A stretch of DNA of 25,605 bases from a virus. Positions 5,600-24,266 of the stretch are shown here, one piece after another. Position 1 is the stretch's first letter. Each line of letters begins with the position of its first letter. The position numbers and the translations under genes were made by a program. The DNA is taken from IMG/VR virus record IMGVR_UViG_3300036886_000009, positions 1 through 25,605 of that record, one strand, 5' to 3'. The notes under the pieces were generated by a model that saw only the letters and a program-made list of their open reading frames with translations, did not search any database and was not told where the DNA came from.

Positions 5600-5841
5600 T
5601 GGCAACGAAGATTGAAGTTTATGGAGTAGAGGCAGAATGGACTGAAGAAGGTCTGTGGACTTCTAGTCATGAAGAGCTGACCTTTATTCTGAATATGAAT
5701 CAAGAACAGAATCAGCTACCCTCTGGTGCGAATCCATGGCCTGCTGGAGTTGCTGTTGAGATAGCTAAAGATATTTTTCCAGATCTAAAGATTATAGAGC
5801 AAGAAGACAAACCAGAATTCGACAAGAAGGTTACATACTAA
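5599..5841 (+). CDS. Small acidic phage protein
   Basis: An 80-residue protein I do not recognise. It overlaps the preceding gene by one base (TAATG), and GGAG lies a few bases upstream. The composition is acidic and contains a segment with several Trp and Pro residues (GANPWPAGVAVEIAKDIFPDL) that looks folded rather than disordered. There is no signal peptide, membrane segment or metal-binding motif. Its stop overlaps the start of the acetyltransferase-like gene in the same way, so it is translated as part of the accessory operon between terminase and portal. Confidence 0.65.
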   Translation: MATKIEVYGVEAEWTEEGLWTSSHEELTFILNMNQEQNQLPSGANPWPAGVAVEIAKDIFPDLKIIEQEDKPEFDKKVTY

Positions 5842-6584
5842 TGCTGCTATTTGATTTGTTAAAGGGAGAGCCCGGTAGTTTATTTCTGAGCACTGTAGAT
5901 GCAGCTGCTTTCGTGGAGTCTGAGCATCCAAGGGAGCAGACAGGGAAATTCACAGCTGGAGCAGGGAGCAATAAAGGACCTAGCAGTGAAACTAGAAGCG
6001 AATCTAGTAACGAGGGCAGAGCAGACGTGATAACTAAAGGGTATGACACTCCGGAAGCCAAGAAGGCCATTGAAGGAATATTCAATGGAGTAGAGAAAGC
6101 GAAGATTGAAATCAAGGCTTCTGACATTCATCCCAAGCATGAGTTCTCAGTCAACACTACAGGAGCTGGATTCAAATCAACTCTTACTGTGGATAGGAAG
6201 GCTAAAGACATATTCGTAGATGAGGTCCATATTTCACGGACAAAGCAAGGAAGAGACATAGGCAAGAATATGATTCACAACATGATTGCCTTTGCAAAGA
6301 AAGAAGGAATGCAGACGATCAGCTTGTGGGCTGCTGAGAAGGTCGGCATATATGCTTGGGCCAAACTCGGATTCGACTATGATCAGCCTACAGGATTGCA
6401 AGATGCAAAGGCTTCTCTGAAGATCTACTGCAAAGATAACGGCATAAAGTTAGGGAAAGAAGATTTGAATAAACTAAAGACAGCAAAGGATGTAGCAAGT
6501 CTTACAATCAATGATGAGACGGTGGGAAAGAATTTCATGCTGTCAGGAAGTCACGGAAGTTGGACAGGAGTGTTAAAGATATGA
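5841..6584 (+). CDS. Tagged GNAT-family acetyltransferase
   Basis: A 247-residue protein combining the shared tag with a GNAT fold. Residues 1-24 (MLLFDLLKG, SLFLSTVDA) are the tag. EHPREQTGKF followed by TAGAGS is a shortened version of the EHPRGQPxNAGQF linker. The enzymatic part, about residues 95-185, contains the acetyl-CoA pyrophosphate-binding motif Q136-G-R-D-I-G141 followed by a long helix, then SLWAAEKVGIYAWAKLGF, the usual late GNAT motif with Y171. The acceptor is unknown; phage GNATs can modify host proteins or toxins. Presence of the tag argues that it is carried in the particle (inference). Start ATG 5841 overlaps the upstream stop. Confidence 0.8.
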   Translation: MLLFDLLKGEPGSLFLSTVDAAAFVESEHPREQTGKFTAGAGSNKGPSSETRSESSNEGRADVITKGYDTPEAKKAIEGIFNGVEKAKIEIKASDIHPKHEFSVNTTGAGFKSTLTVDRKAKDIFVDEVHISRTKQGRDIGKNMIHNMIAFAKKEGMQTISLWAAEKVGIYAWAKLGFDYDQPTGLQDAKASLKIYCKDNGIKLGKEDLNKLKTAKDVASLTINDETVGKNFMLSGSHGSWTGVLKI

Positions 6585-9882: not shown

Positions 9883-10007
9883 ATCTGCATGAATACATGG
9901 AATCATATTTAAGGTGGCAACAGAATTATCTAAATTTCTGCAATACTTTTTGGAGTATGTATTTGCAGAGAGTCAATGAAAGAATTAAGGAGATGACTAA
10001 TGGCTAA
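9879..10007 (+). CDS. Very small aromatic-rich protein
   Basis: A 42-residue protein between the small membrane protein and the portal. ATG 9879 overlaps the preceding stop by four bases, and its end overlaps the first eight bases of the portal gene. It is rich in Tyr, Trp, Phe, Asn and Gln (SYLRWQQNYLNFCNTFWSMY) and is probably helical. The portal ribosome binding site (AAGGAG, 9987-9992) lies inside it. Coding is supported by the overlaps only. Confidence 0.4.
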   Translation: MNLHEYMESYLRWQQNYLNFCNTFWSMYLQRVNERIKEMTNG

Positions 10008-12594
10008 GAAGATTTCAAAGGCTCTTGTCCCGATGATACCAGAGAGAAAAGGAAAGCTGACTATTGATCAACAAACTCTAGACAGCTTTATGAATGTGGC
10101 GGCTAAGCTTGGAATACAAGCTGAGAATTTAAGCAGCCAGGGATATTATGCGCTAGGCCCATTCATCACGCGCAATAGGATTGAACTTGAAGCTGCTTAT
10201 AGATCTAGCTGGCTGGTTGGTCAAGTGGTGGACTGCATTGCTGAGGACATGACTCGAGATGGAATCAATATACGCTCAGAACTCAAGCCTGACGATATCC
10301 AGAAGATACAAGTTGGATTCAGTGAGTTTGGAATATGGCACGACATCTCTATGGCAATCAAATGGGGAAGGTTATACGGAGGAGCAATAGCAGTCATCTT
10401 AATTGACGGAGCGAAGTATGATACTCCTTTGAATATAGAAGCCGTTGGAAAAGGAAAATTCAAAGGTCTTGTTATACTTGATCGTTGGATGGTGCAGCCT
10501 ACAATGGGAGACTTGATTACTGACATTGGTAAAGATCTGGGTAAGCCTAAATTTTATCAGGTGCTAGGAACATCAACTTCATTCCAGGGAGAGAAGATAC
10601 ATCATACCCGCTGTATGCGCTTCGATGGAATTGAGCTTCCTTATTATCAGAAGTTGTTTGAGAATCTTTGGGGCATGTCAGTTGTCGAGAGAATGCTAGA
10701 TCGTCTTATGGCATTTGATAGCGCTACTCAGGGAGCAGCTCAGCTTTTATATAAGGCCTACCTGCGTGTTATTAAAGTAAAGGGATTCAGGGAAGCGCTG
10801 TCTTTAGGAGGAACAAAAGAAGCAGCAGTCATTAAATGGTTCCAGTATATCCGGTTGATGCAGACGAACGAGGGAATCACAACGCTTGATGCAGAAGATG
10901 ATTTTGCAGTCCATCCATATTCTTTCGGGGGCATATCTGATATGCTGATTCAATTCGGTCAGCAGATTTCAGGAGCTACTGGAATTCCTCTTGTAAGATT
11001 ATTCGGTCAATCTCCTACAGGACTTAATTCTTCTGGAGAGTCAGATCTTAGAAATTACTATGATCATATAAACAAGCTGCAAGAGAATCAATTGAGACCT
11101 CAACTTGACAAGTTGCTAGCAGTCATGTCTATGTCAATACTTGGACATGAGCTTCCTGAAGATTTAGAGTTTGATTTCATTCCCCTGTGGCAATTGTCTG
11201 AGACAGAGAAGGCAGAGATTGCATCTACAGATTCTGACAATGTAGCAAAGCGTCATGAGGAAGGACTGATTAAAAAGTCTACGGCTTTAAAGGAGCTGTT
11301 GATTAGCAGCAGGATTACAGGAAGGTTCACAACAATAACTGAAGATGATATTAAGGATGCAGAAGAAGAAGATGCAGCTCCTCCTGCTCTTGTTCCTGGT
11401 ATGCCTGGAGCACCAGCACCGCCTGCAGGCGGAGGAGAACATAAACCTGAAGAACCTGATTCTGCAAATGAGAGGCTGGGCGGATCAAATCCAGAAAATA
11501 CAAAAGAAGGTGAAGGAAAAGATCCGATAGATAAAAACTATAAAGGAACAGATGCTCCTCCAAAGAAGAAATCTATTAAGGATAGTGTAGTGGATTTCTT
11601 TCGAGATGTATTTAAAGAATCTGAACATCCAAGGGGGCAACCTGGAAACGCTGGACAGTTTGGCCCAGGCGGAGGATCAAAATCCTCGTCTAGTTCAAAA
11701 AGTGAGGGAGAAGGTGAATCGTCTCGTCCCCGGAAAGAAAGCGAAACTAGAGGCAACAAGAAGGACAAAGTTCAGCTTGTTTCGACAAAAGTCGTAGGAG
11801 AAAAGCATATGGCAGCGAATGGTAAGCCTCTTCCGCCTCATGTTGCTTCTAAGAGGATTCCTCCAGGATGGACAAATGTGCAATACAATCCTGATCCAAA
11901 AGGCGAGCTTTTGATTATGGGATATGATAAGAAGGGTCGTCCACAAAGATTATATTCTGCTGCTCACTGGGAAAAGGCGGATGCAGAGAAATTTTCTCGA
12001 GTAGATGATTTGAATACTAACTATAATAAAGTTAAGAATGAAAATTTGAAGAATATGAAAGGACCGCAATCAGAAGCAGCAACTGTTCTGGGATTGATTA
12101 TGGATACAGGGATACGCCCGGGCGGAGAAGAAGGCTCAGGGGATTTCGCTGCCTATGGAGCAACTACTCTCGAGGGAAGACATATAAAGGTTAATGGAAA
12201 TAATGTAGTTTTAGAATTTGTTAGTGGGAAGTCGAAGGGAAAGACTAAGACAATACCTGTTACAGATCCCTCTGTAGCCAAGACTCTTATCGAAAGGTCT
12301 AAGAACGTTAAGAAAGATGAACAGATATTCTCTGTTGATGAATTCGGGTTGTTGAAGTATACAAAGTCTCTTGACGGACAGAAGTATATTACAAAAGACT
12401 TCCGGACACTGATTGGGACGAAGACAGGCATGACTGCAATGAAAGATGTAGAGAAGCCTACAGATATGAAGTCGTACAAGAAGGCTTGTATGAAAGTTGC
12501 AAAAGTAGTTGCTGAGAAATTGGGAAACACTCCTAAGATGGCATTGAAGTCTTATATCAATCCAGTGATATTCGCTGATTGGAGGATCGACTAA
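10000..12594 (+). CDS. Portal protein fused to a topoisomerase IB domain
   Basis: An 864-residue protein with two functional parts in one uninterrupted frame. Residues 1 to about 450 are a DUF1073-type portal, the dodecameric ring through which DNA enters the head (LVGQVVDCIAEDMTRDGI, GLNSSGESDLRNYYDHI). A Pro/Gly-rich linker follows (about 455-540), then E542-HPRGQPGNAGQF554 and a Ser-rich spacer. From about 590 on it matches DNA topoisomerase IB: KRIPPGWTNV at 618-627, R706 in GIRPGGEE, K744 in SGKSKG, R802 in DFRT, N843 in LGNTP and the nucleophile candidate Y852 in SYINP. The R-K-R-N-Y set and the 9-residue N-to-Y spacing equal those of bacterial enzymes such as the Deinococcus one. AAGGAG lies 7 nt before ATG 10000. 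The topoisomerase might relax DNA during packaging or ejection, or be cut free as cargo (inference). Confidence 0.9.
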   Translation: MAKKISKALVPMIPERKGKLTIDQQTLDSFMNVAAKLGIQAENLSSQGYYALGPFITRNRIELEAAYRSSWLVGQVVDCIAEDMTRDGINIRSELKPDDIQKIQVGFSEFGIWHDISMAIKWGRLYGGAIAVILIDGAKYDTPLNIEAVGKGKFKGLVILDRWMVQPTMGDLITDIGKDLGKPKFYQVLGTSTSFQGEKIHHTRCMRFDGIELPYYQKLFENLWGMSVVERMLDRLMAFDSATQGAAQLLYKAYLRVIKVKGFREALSLGGTKEAAVIKWFQYIRLMQTNEGITTLDAEDDFAVHPYSFGGISDMLIQFGQQISGATGIPLVRLFGQSPTGLNSSGESDLRNYYDHINKLQENQLRPQLDKLLAVMSMSILGHELPEDLEFDFIPLWQLSETEKAEIASTDSDNVAKRHEEGLIKKSTALKELLISSRITGRFTTITEDDIKDAEEEDAAPPALVPGMPGAPAPPAGGGEHKPEEPDSANERLGGSNPENTKEGEGKDPIDKNYKGTDAPPKKKSIKDSVVDFFRDVFKESEHPRGQPGNAGQFGPGGGSKSSSSSKSEGEGESSRPRKESETRGNKKDKVQLVSTKVVGEKHMAANGKPLPPHVASKRIPPGWTNVQYNPDPKGELLIMGYDKKGRPQRLYSAAHWEKADAEKFSRVDDLNTNYNKVKNENLKNMKGPQSEAATVLGLIMDTGIRPGGEEGSGDFAAYGATTLEGRHIKVNGNNVVLEFVSGKSKGKTKTIPVTDPSVAKTLIERSKNVKKDEQIFSVDEFGLLKYTKSLDGQKYITKDFRTLIGTKTGMTAMKDVEKPTDMKSYKKACMKVAKVVAEKLGNTPKMALKSYINPVIFADWRID

Positions 12595-20851: not shown

Positions 20852-22009
20852 ATGGCAAATCCACAGACTTTAAATCTTGACTCCATTGTGACTATATCGG
20901 TGCAGGTGTCTCCTGTTTCTGCTCCGAGAAGCACTTTCAATCAGGCTCTCATTTTGGGGTCATCTACAGTTATTTCTACTGTAGAGAGAGTCAGAAAGTA
21001 TACACGACTTGCTGATATGCTTACGGACGGCTTCTTGGTTTCTAGTCCCGAGTATATTGCTGCTCAAATTTATTTCAGTCAGATTCCAACTCCATTGACT
21101 CTTTGGATTGGTCGTCAGGATAAAACAACTTCTCCAAATGAGACTTGTTTGCAAGCTTTGCAGGCTTGTCGGACAGCTAATTTCCAATGGTATATTGCCA
21201 TTGTCTTGAATGCTGTCAAAGCAGATCATATTGCGATTGCAGGTTACATTGAGACTGCGACTCCGTCCAGCCTTTATGCATTTACGACTAGTGATGCAGA
21301 TTGTTTGATTGGATTAACTTCTCCAGCAAACATTTTCACTTATCTTAAAAGCCTAGGGTATAAGAGAACCATTGGTCAGTATGCAACTACACAGAGCGCT
21401 TTGTATCCCAACAATATTTATGCTGTTGTAGCGGCTGTAGGGTATGCCTGCGGTCAGAATACGGGTCTGGCTAACTCAGCATTCACTCTAAAATTCAAAT
21501 CTCAGATTGGTATTGCTACGGAGCCTTTAACTCCTTCTCAGATTGCATTGATTGAAGGACAGAATGGAAATGTGTATCTGTCTTATGGTAACTTCTACAC
21601 AATCTTTGAGCAAGGACAAATGGCAGCAGCAAATTGGTTCTTTGACCAGGTGATTAATCTTGATATGCTGGTTAACAATATTCAGTTGACAATCATGGAT
21701 CTGTTGGCAAGCAATCCAAAGATTCCTCAGACAGATGTTGGTGTTGCTATGTTGATTCATGCTGTCAATCGTGCTTGCGATACAGCTGTGTCTGTTGGAT
21801 TCTTAGGTCCTGGAAATTGGAGTGGTGTCCAGATCCTAAATCTTAACAATGGGGATACAATGCCGAATGGTTATATTGCTCAGGCTGATTCTCTTGCTAA
21901 TCAATCAACAGCAGACAGAGCAGCTAGAAAAGCTCCTTCTATTTATCTTGCGATTAAACCAGCTGGTGCTGTCCATAGCGTGATAGTCGGTATTTACATT
22001 TCGGCATAA
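20852..22009 (+). CDS. Tail sheath protein (DUF3383)
   Basis: A 385-residue DUF3383 protein, the sheath of a contractile tail. N-terminal beta strands (LDSIVTISVQVSPVSAP, FNQALILGS) and a C-terminal domain with AIKPAGAVHSVIVGIYIS are as in the family. The internal segment EGQNGNVYLSYGNF is also typical, as is the position just before a tube gene. The gene tells us the virion contracts on infection. GAGGTGAG precedes ATG 20852. Confidence 0.9.
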   Translation: MANPQTLNLDSIVTISVQVSPVSAPRSTFNQALILGSSTVISTVERVRKYTRLADMLTDGFLVSSPEYIAAQIYFSQIPTPLTLWIGRQDKTTSPNETCLQALQACRTANFQWYIAIVLNAVKADHIAIAGYIETATPSSLYAFTTSDADCLIGLTSPANIFTYLKSLGYKRTIGQYATTQSALYPNNIYAVVAAVGYACGQNTGLANSAFTLKFKSQIGIATEPLTPSQIALIEGQNGNVYLSYGNFYTIFEQGQMAAANWFFDQVINLDMLVNNIQLTIMDLLASNPKIPQTDVGVAMLIHAVNRACDTAVSVGFLGPGNWSGVQILNLNNGDTMPNGYIAQADSLANQSTADRAARKAPSIYLAIKPAGAVHSVIVGIYISA

Positions 22010-22042: not shown

Positions 22043-22477
22043 ATGCAAACTACCTATTCATTTTTAGACTTGTCTGGAGTCATTGCTCACCCTCTCGGAG
22101 GAACAATGAATTTCACAGGTCTTGGAACAGGTCAGGTAACTGTTTCGATGGCTCAGGAAAGATCTGCTATTGAGACTGCTGCAGACGGATCAGTAATGAT
22201 CAGTAAATTAGCAGGTAACAATGGTTCGATTCAAATTCAATGTCAGCAGACTTCATTTGTTCATAAATTTTTGCTGGAGCTTTATAACAAGCTTATTATT
22301 GCAGGCCCTGATCAGTGGGCTCAAGCAGCAGTATTGCTGAGGAACATATCTGACGGAACGAGCCATGTGGCAACAGGAGTTTGTTTCTCAAAAATTCCTG
22401 ATAAACTATATACACGACAAGGTCAGATGATTACTTGGTCACTTCTCGCAGGAGATATTCAAAGCGTGACTATGTAA
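22043..22477 (+). CDS. Tail tube protein (DUF3277-like)
   Basis: A 144-residue tail tube protein of the DUF3277/KPP10 type. It contains TYSFLDLSGVIAHPLGG at the N-terminus, the central MAQERSAIETAADGSVMISK and a C-terminal QGQMITWSLLAGDIQSV. It forms the inner tube through which DNA passes. AAGGAGG stands 8-10 nt before ATG 22043, and it directly follows the sheath gene, as expected. Confidence 0.85.
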   Translation: MQTTYSFLDLSGVIAHPLGGTMNFTGLGTGQVTVSMAQERSAIETAADGSVMISKLAGNNGSIQIQCQQTSFVHKFLLELYNKLIIAGPDQWAQAAVLLRNISDGTSHVATGVCFSKIPDKLYTRQGQMITWSLLAGDIQSVTM

Positions 22478-22510
22478 TTGTTTGACACTTACCTTTTAAA
22501 GGAGAGGGAA

Positions 22511-22966
22511 ATGTCTAAACGAGAAACTTTTAAAATTATTGAATCTTGTGGCCGGAGATGGCGCATTGATAAATTTAATGCGCTAACTGGCTCTTATGTT
22601 GTTTATCGTATTCTCTTCCAAATGCTTCCAGGCGGTCTAGAACAAGCTCAAGAAATTCAAGGTTTGAATCTACCGAAGGGTAGAGGTATTATGAATAGAC
22701 AGGATTTTGCAGAATTGCAAATGGACTGTCTATCTGTTTGTTCTGAGATTGTACAAGTTGGAAGCACAGAGGCAGAAATTCCTATAATTAGGAATGAAGC
22801 CTTTACGAGAGAAAATATTGAAGATGATACAATGCTTGTGATGACCCTTACATTACATGCATTGATGTTCAATGTGACAAGTTTTTTCGAAGGCGACGCA
22901 CTGAAGGATTTAGTATTAAGCTTTCAAACGAGCCTTCCTTCGAGTGCGTCAAGTGTGAAAACGTAG
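22511..22966 (+). CDS. Tail assembly chaperone, short form
   Basis: A 151-residue tail assembly chaperone, the protein that coats the tape measure before tube polymerisation. Its N-terminal RRWRIDKFNALTGSYVVYRI and helical body fit the KPP10-like chaperone group between tube and tape measure. ATG 22511 follows GGAGAGGG; the 11 extra residues in the upstream reading lack a site. The last residues after 126 (EGDALKDLVLSFQTSLPSSA) are translated only when ribosomes do not shift at 22882-22888. Confidence 0.8.
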   Translation: MSKRETFKIIESCGRRWRIDKFNALTGSYVVYRILFQMLPGGLEQAQEIQGLNLPKGRGIMNRQDFAELQMDCLSVCSEIVQVGSTEAEIPIIRNEAFTRENIEDDTMLVMTLTLHALMFNVTSFFEGDALKDLVLSFQTSLPSSASSVKT

Positions 22967-23136
22967 ATCATTTTGCATATGCGCCAGTCATGGTTGGAAA
23001 TTGGCAACAGCATCAAGTATGGGATGGGACTTATACTCTTGATGATTTGATGGACTGGCATGAGATGCATTCAGTGAAAACTGAGAACGAAAAGATGTAT
23101 AGAGAATATATTGAATCTAAAGAAAAGGACGGATAA
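22511..23136 (+). CDS. Tail assembly chaperone, frameshifted long form
   Basis: The -1 frameshift product, 208 residues: 126 from the chaperone frame, then 82 from the -1 frame (codons from 22888 to the TAA at 23134-23136). The added part starts RRRRTEGFSIKLSNEP, includes a CVKCEN pair of Cys and continues VMVGNWQQHQVWDGTYTLDD and MYREYIESKEKDG. There is no separate start or ribosome binding site for this frame, and it fills the otherwise empty 22967-23135 interval and ends on the tape measure start (TAATG). In lambda the equivalent extension (gpT) binds the tape measure protein. Confidence 0.8.
22882..22950 (+). other. Programmed -1 ribosomal frameshift signal
   Basis: T TTT TTC at 22882-22888 is a canonical X XXY YYZ slippery heptamer in the reading register of the chaperone gene. 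After a 6-nt spacer, GACGCAC (22895-22901) pairs with GTGCGTC (22944-22950), and GAAGG (22903-22907) pairs with CCTTC (22937-22941). This gives a 12-bp stem with a small internal bulge and a 29-nt loop. Slip site, spacing and stem all match known -1 signals in tail assembly chaperone genes such as lambda G/GT. Confidence 0.85.
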
Positions 23137-24266
23137 TGCCTTCACAAGCTGATGTCATAAAAGAATATCTTGTATCTCTTGGATTCCAAGTTGACAACGA
23201 TGCATTGAATAAGTTTAAGGATTCTCTTGAAAATCTTTCTAAGATGCTTCAAGAGAAAGCTTCTTCAATGTCAAAAGCATATATCATTGCTGCTACTGAA
23301 ATTGTATCCGCCCTTCTTACTGTAACAACAGCTACAGCACTTCTTCTTGATAAAATTGCACAAGCAGATCTTGGCTATCAGAAATATGCATTAAGAATGT
23401 ATATGGCTAGGGATGCTGCAAAGGAGTTAAAAATTGTTACAGATGCAATGGGAGAATCTCTTGAAGATATCGCTTGGAATCCAGAACTTAGTCAGAGATA
23501 TAAAGGTTATATGGCTGAAGCTAGGGGAATGGAGACCCCTAAGAATGCAGAAGAGCAATTAAAATACATAAGAGATATAAGAAGTGAGTTTACAAGATTA
23601 AAAATTGAAATAACCTACGGTATGCAGCATGTAGGTATGTATCTTTTTAAATTTCTTCAAGAGCCTATTGTTGGATCTAAACTAGGGATGAAGGAGTTAA
23701 ATGATTATATCCAGCAACACTTACCAGAAATAGCAAGAACTATAGCTGAGAATCTTGCTATAGTTATTAACTTTGGTAGAGATCTTTGGAAAATTTTAAA
23801 AGATTGTGGATCAGGGGCAAAATATTTATGGGATACATTATCAGATAAAGGAAAAGCTAATGCTGTATTGCTTGTGTTCGCTGGGCTTATTGCTGCTACT
23901 GGTCCATTAGGAAGACTTCTTGCAGCACTTACTTTGTTACAGGATTTTTATAAATTTATTCATAATGAAGAAGGTAGAGAGAAACGTTTAGATCCATATT
24001 GGGAAAAATTATTTTTTGCCATAGCAAAAGTATATTATATTGCTGGAGAAGCGTTTGCTAGATTATCAATGGTTGCTACTATAGGAGGATTAATTGCATC
24101 AGGAGAATTCAAAGAAGCTGCTAGATTAACTAAAGCTCTTCCAGAATTTTATGCAAAGACTCATAAACAATCTCAGGATGATTATAACGCAACAGTCAGA
24201 GGATACGTAGAAGAACGAATGGCTCCTGCTAGTGAGAATGATGAAGATCTTTTGAAAATGAAGTAA
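23136..24266 (+). CDS. Tape measure protein, N-terminal part
   Basis: A 376-residue protein, mostly helix, with two hydrophobic segments (AYIIAATEIVSALLTVTTAT, and NAVLLVFAGLIAATGPLGRL), as in tape measure proteins that set tail length and pass through the host membrane. It follows the chaperone with a TAATG overlap. It stops at TAA 24264-24266, while the rest of a typical tape measure, a lytic transglycosylase domain and a characteristic C-terminus, continues in the -1 frame at once. Taken together the two parts come to about 600 residues. So this is either a split gene or one interrupted by a 1-base deletion. Confidence 0.75.
   Translation: MPSQADVIKEYLVSLGFQVDNDALNKFKDSLENLSKMLQEKASSMSKAYIIAATEIVSALLTVTTATALLLDKIAQADLGYQKYALRMYMARDAAKELKIVTDAMGESLEDIAWNPELSQRYKGYMAEARGMETPKNAEEQLKYIRDIRSEFTRLKIEITYGMQHVGMYLFKFLQEPIVGSKLGMKELNDYIQQHLPEIARTIAENLAIVINFGRDLWKILKDCGSGAKYLWDTLSDKGKANAVLLVFAGLIAATGPLGRLLAALTLLQDFYKFIHNEEGREKRLDPYWEKLFFAIAKVYYIAGEAFARLSMVATIGGLIASGEFKEAARLTKALPEFYAKTHKQSQDDYNATVRGYVEERMAPASENDEDLLKMK

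What the first reader, a model, noticed from the sequence alone, without database searches (positions are those of the whole stretch)
22882..22950. Canonical -1 frameshift signal in the tail assembly chaperone gene
Seen: T TTT TTC in register, 6-nt spacer, then a 12-bp bulged stem, and an 82-codon extension in the -1 frame with no start of its own that ends exactly at the tape measure start. Known: conserved frameshifting in chaperone genes of lambda-like and many other tails. The mechanism is expected, but this particular site looks uncommonly complete and would be missed by ordinary gene calling.
Basis: partly seen in the sequence, partly recalled or inferred. Interest (0 to 1): 0.62.

Follow-up and report, generated by a model that had tools for sequence, protein, structure and literature searches.

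The report
Frameshift site in phage tail gene
A phage gene for a tail-building helper protein carries a signal that very likely makes some ribosomes slip back one letter and add a hidden second domain; this is a well-known trick, here found conserved in more than a hundred related phages and prophages, and it suggests a role for a protein family listed as having no known function.

Summary
An 82-codon -1 extension ends in a TAA (23134-23136) overlapping the tape measure ATG. It is the only in-register T6 heptamer in 29 genes examined. The extension is DUF6889 (PF21829) / phrog_4364, both 'unknown function'. In all 115 distinct loci where the chaperone ORF could be assigned, the C domain lies in its -1 frame; 113 have an in-register T6 site, two have T5. 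A downstream stem starting 5-9 nt after the heptamer is enriched only at that spot. Own stem arms pair better than arms swapped between loci in two sets (0 of 5000 permutations each); in a fixed register covariation is weaker and mixed. The mechanism is the known lambda G/GT-type programmed -1 frameshift; SPP1 is reported with the same heptamer. So: an ordinary, well-supported new member of a known kind. The modest gain is a likely role for DUF6889. Frameshifting itself and the product ratio are inferred, not measured.

The parts
22511..22966 (+). zero-frame tail assembly chaperone (TAC-N, gpG-like), 151 aa
   Evidence: translation; PF21822 Phage_TAC_15 E 1.6e-6; phrog_1688 tail assembly chaperone E 1.2e-6
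22882..22888 (+). slippery heptamer T TTT TTC, codons F125-F126
   Evidence: in-register T6 in 113 of 115 assignable distinct loci
22889..22894 (+). 6-nt spacer between heptamer and stem
   Evidence: family-wide folding signal for windows starting 5 nt after the heptamer
22895..22950 (+). predicted stimulatory stem: 14 bp, one bulged base; arms 22895-22908 and 22936-22950; small inner hairpin in the loop
   Evidence: arm-swap tests
22888..23136 (+). -1 frame extension, 82 codons plus TAA (T-like domain, DUF6889), giving a 208-aa fusion (126 + 82)
   Evidence: PF21829 26.2 bits against cut-off 23.9; phrog_4364 E 2e-8
23136..24266 (+). next gene, tape-measure-like protein (376 aa); its start overlaps the extension's stop
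   Evidence: phrog_22539 (unknown function) E 1e-21, phrog_2276 tail length tape measure protein E 2.9e-4
22043..22477 (+). tail tube protein by position and family (KPP10 Orf10, PF11681)
   Evidence: PF11681 E 9.7e-40
20852..22009 (+). tail sheath protein (DUF3383)
   Evidence: PF11863 E 3.8e-60; phrog_205 tail sheath

Best explanation
This is a programmed -1 ribosomal frameshift in the tail assembly chaperone gene of a contractile-tailed phage. Most ribosomes read 22511-22966 and make the 151-aa chaperone. A minority, with tRNA-Phe in both the P and A sites on T TTT TTC and held up by the stem 6 nt downstream, re-pair one base back (TTT TTT) and read on for 82 codons. They make a 208-aa fusion whose C-terminal DUF6889 domain plays the part of lambda's T domain: it is thought to recruit tail tube subunits onto the chaperone-coated tape measure. 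Shown here: anatomy, family assignments, conservation of frame relation and slip site, positional stem signal and arm-swap covariation. Inferred: that slippage happens, its rate, the exact junction F126-R127, and the T-domain function.
For: Anatomy. TAC-N is PF21822, matched by 82 of 91 homologous N ORFs scanned. The C domain is PF21829, matched by 42 of 45 scanned. Frame: 82 of the 85 loci with a C domain have an overlapping upstream ORF in the -1 relation (73 unique). In one search, 48 of 51 genome loci were called -1, but in 4 of them (L091, L108, L117, L130) with the wrong upstream ORF; one search gave the right one, also -1, and added L129. Slip site: T6 in register in 71 of 73 unique (61 TTTTTTC, 9 TTTTTTT, 1 TTTTTTA), in 37 further distinct loci and in 5 more; the two exceptions have T5. 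Background in the same ORFs: third-base T 28.8%, Phe as TTT 344 of 552; of 15 other FF pairs with a preceding codon, 1 was preceded by T. The -1 frame opens only 9 nt or less before the heptamer in 49 of 113 loci, which pins the slip to this spot. Stem: mean folding z -1.68 for windows starting 5 nt after the heptamer against -0.18 six bases further on (71 loci). Arm-swap test: own -12.57 against permuted -8.92, sd 0.34, 0 of 5000 (67 loci; 7 control offsets flat); repeated on 36 new loci, -14.94 against -11.41, sd 0.43, 0 of 5000.
Against: No expression data of any kind. The window's stem is less striking in a longer context (z -1.1), and 61% of 71 loci do not reach z below -2 at the peak. 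Fixed-register covariation is modest: z 2.5 for the long stem (60 loci) and z 6.3 for the short hairpin (40 loci), so the exact partner segment turns over. In the replication set one of five control offsets also leaned (52 of 5000). Two loci have only T5; Psychrobacter phage pOW20-A keeps the -1 relation without a canonical heptamer in register. L125 and L136 carry a C domain with no chaperone ORF or slip site found. An internal ATG at 22990 could give a short separate product.
Confidence: 0.93

Rival explanations
1. The downstream frame is a separate small gene, translated from its own start (for example ATG 22990) by re-initiation or coupling.
For: ATG 22990 exists in frame; 80 of 113 loci have some in-frame ATG before or early in the domain. 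In Klebsiella phage GZ7 the homologous stretch is annotated as a separate 58-aa gene from an ATG.
Against: 16 of 113 loci have no ATG/GTG/TTG in the C frame up to 117 nt after the heptamer. Start positions vary, and only 19 of 113 have any start with a Shine-Dalgarno-like 4-mer in the 18 nt upstream. It does not explain the open frame back to the heptamer, the conserved residues before position 35 (R2, N25, P33), the T6 site or the stem.
Confidence: 0.03
2. RNA polymerase slips on the T run (transcriptional slippage), giving a mixed mRNA population.
For: A homopolymer T run is conserved.
Against: The run is short and does not grow: 6 T in 62 and 7 T in 9 of 71 loci. It is kept in one register (T|TTT|TT). 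The conserved structure lies downstream, starting 5-9 nt after the heptamer, in RNA not yet made when the polymerase is on the run; that last step is reasoning, not a test.
Confidence: 0.03
3. It is one continuous gene split by a homopolymer sequencing error.
For: Homopolymer indels are a common error in general (recalled).
Against: The same -1 relation holds in 115 of 115 assignable distinct loci, including genomes titled as named strains such as Sporomusa ovata DSM 2662, Clostridium hydrogeniformans DSM 21757 and Alicyclobacillus sendaiensis NBRC 100866, and in isolated Agathobaculum phages.
Confidence: 0.01

Closest known systems
Phage lambda gpG/gpGT -1 frameshift
   Same: Chaperone gene between tube and tape measure genes; a -1 shift near the 3' end adds a second domain (review PMC5009743, passages).
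   Different: Lambda's heptamer is G GGA AAG (recalled); here T TTT TTC with a downstream stem, in a contractile-tailed phage. No sequence relation to lambda G/T was tested.
Bacillus phage SPP1 gp17.5/gp17.5*
   Same: Putative -1 frameshift at the identical heptamer UUUUUUC in the tail chaperone gene (PMC6316719, passages).
   Different: SPP1 is a siphovirus; homology of its proteins to PF21822/PF21829 was not tested here.
Pseudomonas phage Adele and other Vandenendeviridae / Andersonviridae chaperone loci
   Same: Myovirus chaperone with an invariant GTTTTT motif and a downstream ORF argued to be the -1 C-terminal part rather than a gene (PMC12846349, passages).
   Different: No stem-loop, hairpin, pseudoknot or heptanucleotide is mentioned there (term search); C-domain homology was not tested here.
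Pfam PF21829 (DUF6889) / phrog_4364 / phrog_3976
   Same: The window's extension matches PF21829 above its cut-off, and phrog_4364 and phrog_3976.
   Different: The libraries give no function. phrog_4364 is 54 aa long and the match begins at residue 29 of the extension, so the profile lacks the stretch next to the slip site.
Agathobaculum phages AB434P2 and AB434P3
   Same: Same gene order, T TTT TTC in register, -1 DUF6889-type domain running up to the next gene.
   Different: About 30% identity in the chaperone; the C domain is left unannotated in the records; no strong stem (z about 0).

Membership tests
Lambda G/GT-type programmed -1 frameshift in tail assembly chaperones | Gene lies between the tail tube gene and the tape measure gene | tested here: met
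   PF11681 tube before, tape-measure-like protein after
Lambda G/GT-type programmed -1 frameshift in tail assembly chaperones | Zero-frame product is a tail assembly chaperone | tested here: met
   PF21822 29.1 bits, cut-off 22; 82 of 91 relatives scanned
Lambda G/GT-type programmed -1 frameshift in tail assembly chaperones | In-register X XXY YYZ heptamer near the 3' end, with an open -1 frame to the tape measure gene | tested here: met
   T6 in 113 of 115 assignable distinct loci
Lambda G/GT-type programmed -1 frameshift in tail assembly chaperones | Downstream stimulatory RNA structure (common in -1 frameshifting, not universal) | tested here: met
   Positional folding signal and arm-swap tests; fixed-register covariation weaker and mixed; that it stimulates slippage was not testable
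Lambda G/GT-type programmed -1 frameshift in tail assembly chaperones | Two products are made in a set ratio; the long one bridges tape measure and tube protein | not testable with these tools
   Needs reporter assay, mass spectrometry and binding tests
PF21829 DUF6889 | Score above the curated gathering cut-off | tested here: met
   26.2 bits against 23.9; 42 of 45 related extensions match at E up to 0.001
SPP1 gp17.5* and Adele TAC-NC (as homologous proteins) | Sequence homology of the C-terminal domains | not tested
   Neither record was fetched; the likeness rests on mechanism and papers only

The most novel reading that the evidence does not exclude
Across DUF6889-type phages the slip site and the start of the stem are fixed, while the stem's 3' partner is rebuilt again and again from different downstream segments (a far partner giving a long stem in some lineages, a near one giving a short hairpin in others). 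Selection would keep a stimulator of the needed strength rather than a given structure, so that each lineage tunes its own short:long chaperone ratio. DUF6889 would then be one T-domain superfamily shared by contractile-tailed phages of Bacillota and of Gram-negative hosts (Klebsiella, Aeromonas, Psychrobacter).
Probability: 0.35. Interest if true: 0.45.

Novelty: new member of a known kind. Interest (0 to 1): 0.3.

Why it matters
It suggests a role for a Pfam/PHROG family listed as unknown (DUF6889, phrog_4364). It also shows that this C domain is often missed or called as a separate gene: it has no annotated gene of its own in the two Agathobaculum phages, Psychrobacter phage pOW20-A, an uncultured phage genome (MW202455) and Aeromonas phage phiA050, and is a separate 'hypothetical protein' in Klebsiella phage GZ7. 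A gene caller that joins PF21822 to PF21829 across a T6 site would fix such cases. The conserved set of sites is ready material for testing how stem strength sets frameshift rate and tail assembly.

Tried and rejected
Searches of viral contigs with single proteins found nothing; a two-row chaperone alignment found one locus; the C-domain alignment A2 worked (178 relatives, the best 80 returned, 98 not seen). Structure of the C domain: mean pLDDT 79.7, pTM 0.56, three helices with a long C-terminal one; Foldseek against PDB gave 2 matches, none with E below 9, so it says nothing about function. NCBIfam: no match for 4 proteins. Rfam on 22700-23200: none. No terminator-like site in 22400-23300, and 2 promoter-like sites against 3.0 expected. 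Papers: 'DUF6889' 0 papers; 'Phage_TAC_15' 0; chaperone + frameshift + covariation 0.

Rejected readings: sequencing error, own start, transcriptional slippage (see rivals). Rows not counted: L003 (unverified record; T6 present but zero-frame ORF only 58 aa), L037 (contig begins inside the C domain), L050 (T6 present, chaperone cut by the contig end), L125 and L136 (no chaperone ORF), plus exact duplicates. L091, L108, L117 and L130 were at first given the wrong N ORF by my script, and L129 none; they were settled. Third-base T in the codon before the site is implied by the T6 definition and is not counted as separate evidence. A3 held 91 N ORFs and A4 45 C domains, chosen by hand to leave out near-copies. 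In my notebook I wrote the pOW20-A site as G GTT TTA; the correct statement is that no in-register X XXY YYZ site was found there. My first checkpoint gave the extension's end as 23137; it is 23136.

Full report
What is there. The window is a 25,605-base viral record. Its tail module runs sheath (20852-22009, PF11863), tube (22043-22477, PF11681), chaperone (22511-22966, PF21822), tape-measure-like protein (23136-24266). In the chaperone gene, codons 125-126 are TTT TTC preceded by a T, so T TTT TTC stands in register at 22882-22888. After a 6-nt spacer comes a predicted 14-bp stem with one bulged base (22895-22950). The -1 frame is open from 22828 to a TAA at 23134-23136 that shares its last base with the tape measure ATG, giving 82 codons after the slip. 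The third frame (+1 or -2) stops at 22902.

More than chance. In 29 genes, 31 of 7592 in-register positions fit X XXY YYZ with Y = A or T; only one is T6, and it has the longest -1 extension. The stem is better than 197 of 200 shuffles in 72 nt, but only better than 173 of 200 in 151 nt. The decisive evidence is comparative.

Relatives. tblastn of the chaperone finds only two Agathobaculum phages in 50,697 phage records. There the homologous C domain lies unannotated in the -1 frame after T TTT TTC. A four-row C-domain alignment found 178 relatives in IMG/VR, of which the best 80 were returned, and 51 in GTDB genomes, mostly Clostridia, with Negativicutes, Paenibacillus, Alicyclobacillus and one Nitrospiraceae MAG by record title. 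Of 85 loci with a C domain (the window and L002-L085), 82 have an overlapping upstream ORF in the -1 relation; they are 73 unique. Of these, 71 carry an in-register T6 and two (L005, L059) T5. Of the 51 genome loci, 37 are new and carry T6, 5 repeat IMG/VR loci with T6, 1 is a duplicate with T6, L134 repeats L005, 5 more (L091, L108, L117, L129, L130) carry T6 once the N ORF is correctly assigned, and 2 (L125, L136) have no chaperone ORF. Together, 113 of 115 assignable distinct loci have T6. In named phage records, MW202455 has T TTT TTT and Aeromonas phiA050 T TTT TTC; Klebsiella GZ7 has T TTT TTG, read from the sequence printed. Psychrobacter pOW20-A has the -1 relation but no X XXY YYZ heptamer in register.

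Where the slip must happen. In 49 of 113 loci the -1 frame opens 9 nt or less before the heptamer, and in all 113 the zero frame stops 21-93 nt after it. So the frames can only be joined close to this site.

The stem. Over 71 loci, 60-nt windows that start 5 nt after the heptamer have mean folding z -1.68 (39% below -2); six bases further on it is -0.18, and at the other offsets it stays between +0.4 and -0.9. Pairing energy between the segment +7..+20 and the region +24..+72 is -12.57 for own arms and -8.92 (sd 0.34) when arms are permuted among 67 loci, 0 of 5000 permutations reaching it; seven control offsets show nothing. In 36 new loci: -14.94 against -11.41 (sd 0.43), 0 of 5000; of five control offsets one leaned (52 of 5000) and four were flat. 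In MFE folds of 108 unique regions, 62 have a short hairpin, 44 a long stem and 2 neither (folds choose their own pairs, so pair types there are not independent evidence). On ungapped alignments the best registers include the long stem (positions summing to 69) in 60 loci and the hairpin (sum 42) in 40 loci, but another register ranks first in the 40-locus set. Fixed-register permutation gives z 2.5 for the long stem (133 of 20000 permutations reach it) and 6.3 for the hairpin (0 of 3000). So the presence and start of a stem are conserved, while the partner segment turns over. Permutations ignore relatedness, so the numbers are not exact probabilities.

The C domain. It is PF21829 DUF6889, matched in 42 of 45 scanned, and phrog_4364. 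Its conserved residues include some before the internal ATG (R2, N25, P33). A model of it (mean pLDDT 79.7) has no PDB match.

How it most likely works. By the lambda model (review PMC5009743, passages), the short chaperone coats the tape measure protein, and the rare long form adds a domain that brings in tube subunits; the -1 shift fixes the ratio. For lambda the review gives 30:1; GeneTack work measured 6 and 7% for two genes of an HK97-like chaperone cluster (PMC3711429, passages). No rate is known here.

Known or new. The mechanism is old, the same heptamer is reported for SPP1 (PMC6316719, passages), and a T-run -1 site is reported for Vandenendeviridae and Andersonviridae myoviruses (PMC12846349, passages). 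The PRFect paper (PMC10885494, passages) treats thousands of annotated chaperone frameshifts and notes misannotation. I found no paper naming DUF6889 or Phage_TAC_15 in the held library, which lacks most subscription journals. Verdict: real, well conserved, ordinary in kind; modest interest for the role it suggests for DUF6889.

Noticed in passing
window 10000-12594: One ORF joins a portal protein (PF06381, aa 62-416) to a C-terminal topoisomerase IB catalytic domain (PF01028, aa 658-846, E 8e-18; weak PF21338 at 619-643).
   Followed up: partly
window ORFs at 2266, 4238, 5841, 7313, 14120 (+): Five ORFs hold near their start a similar leader of about 20 aa (such as [21 protein letters not shown]), and several carry an EHPRGQP..NAGQF-like stretch (read); perhaps a shared capsid-targeting or processing signal.
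   Followed up: no
window 6524-6530: G GGA AAG (the lambda-type heptamer, recalled) stands in register in ORF 5841-6584, with 71 open codons in the -1 frame after it; an ORF in that frame is listed from 6560 with a TTG start, so it may be chance.
   Followed up: no
L125 2375-2680; L136 2459-2614: DUF6889-type domains without a chaperone ORF or slip site; several MAGs (for example CACWXP, CAMVEB, JAFUDS contigs) hold several copies of the domain on different contigs.
   Followed up: partly
L091, L108, L117, L129, L130: The chaperone ORFs before these C domains end in a different-looking sequence (such as LWTLEGFFGG) but keep the same T6 site.
   Followed up: partly
window 22942-22957: The stem's 3' arm (GAGTGCGTC) is followed at once by a similar segment (AAGTGTG); in related loci the 3' arm lies where this second segment is (read).
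   Followed up: no
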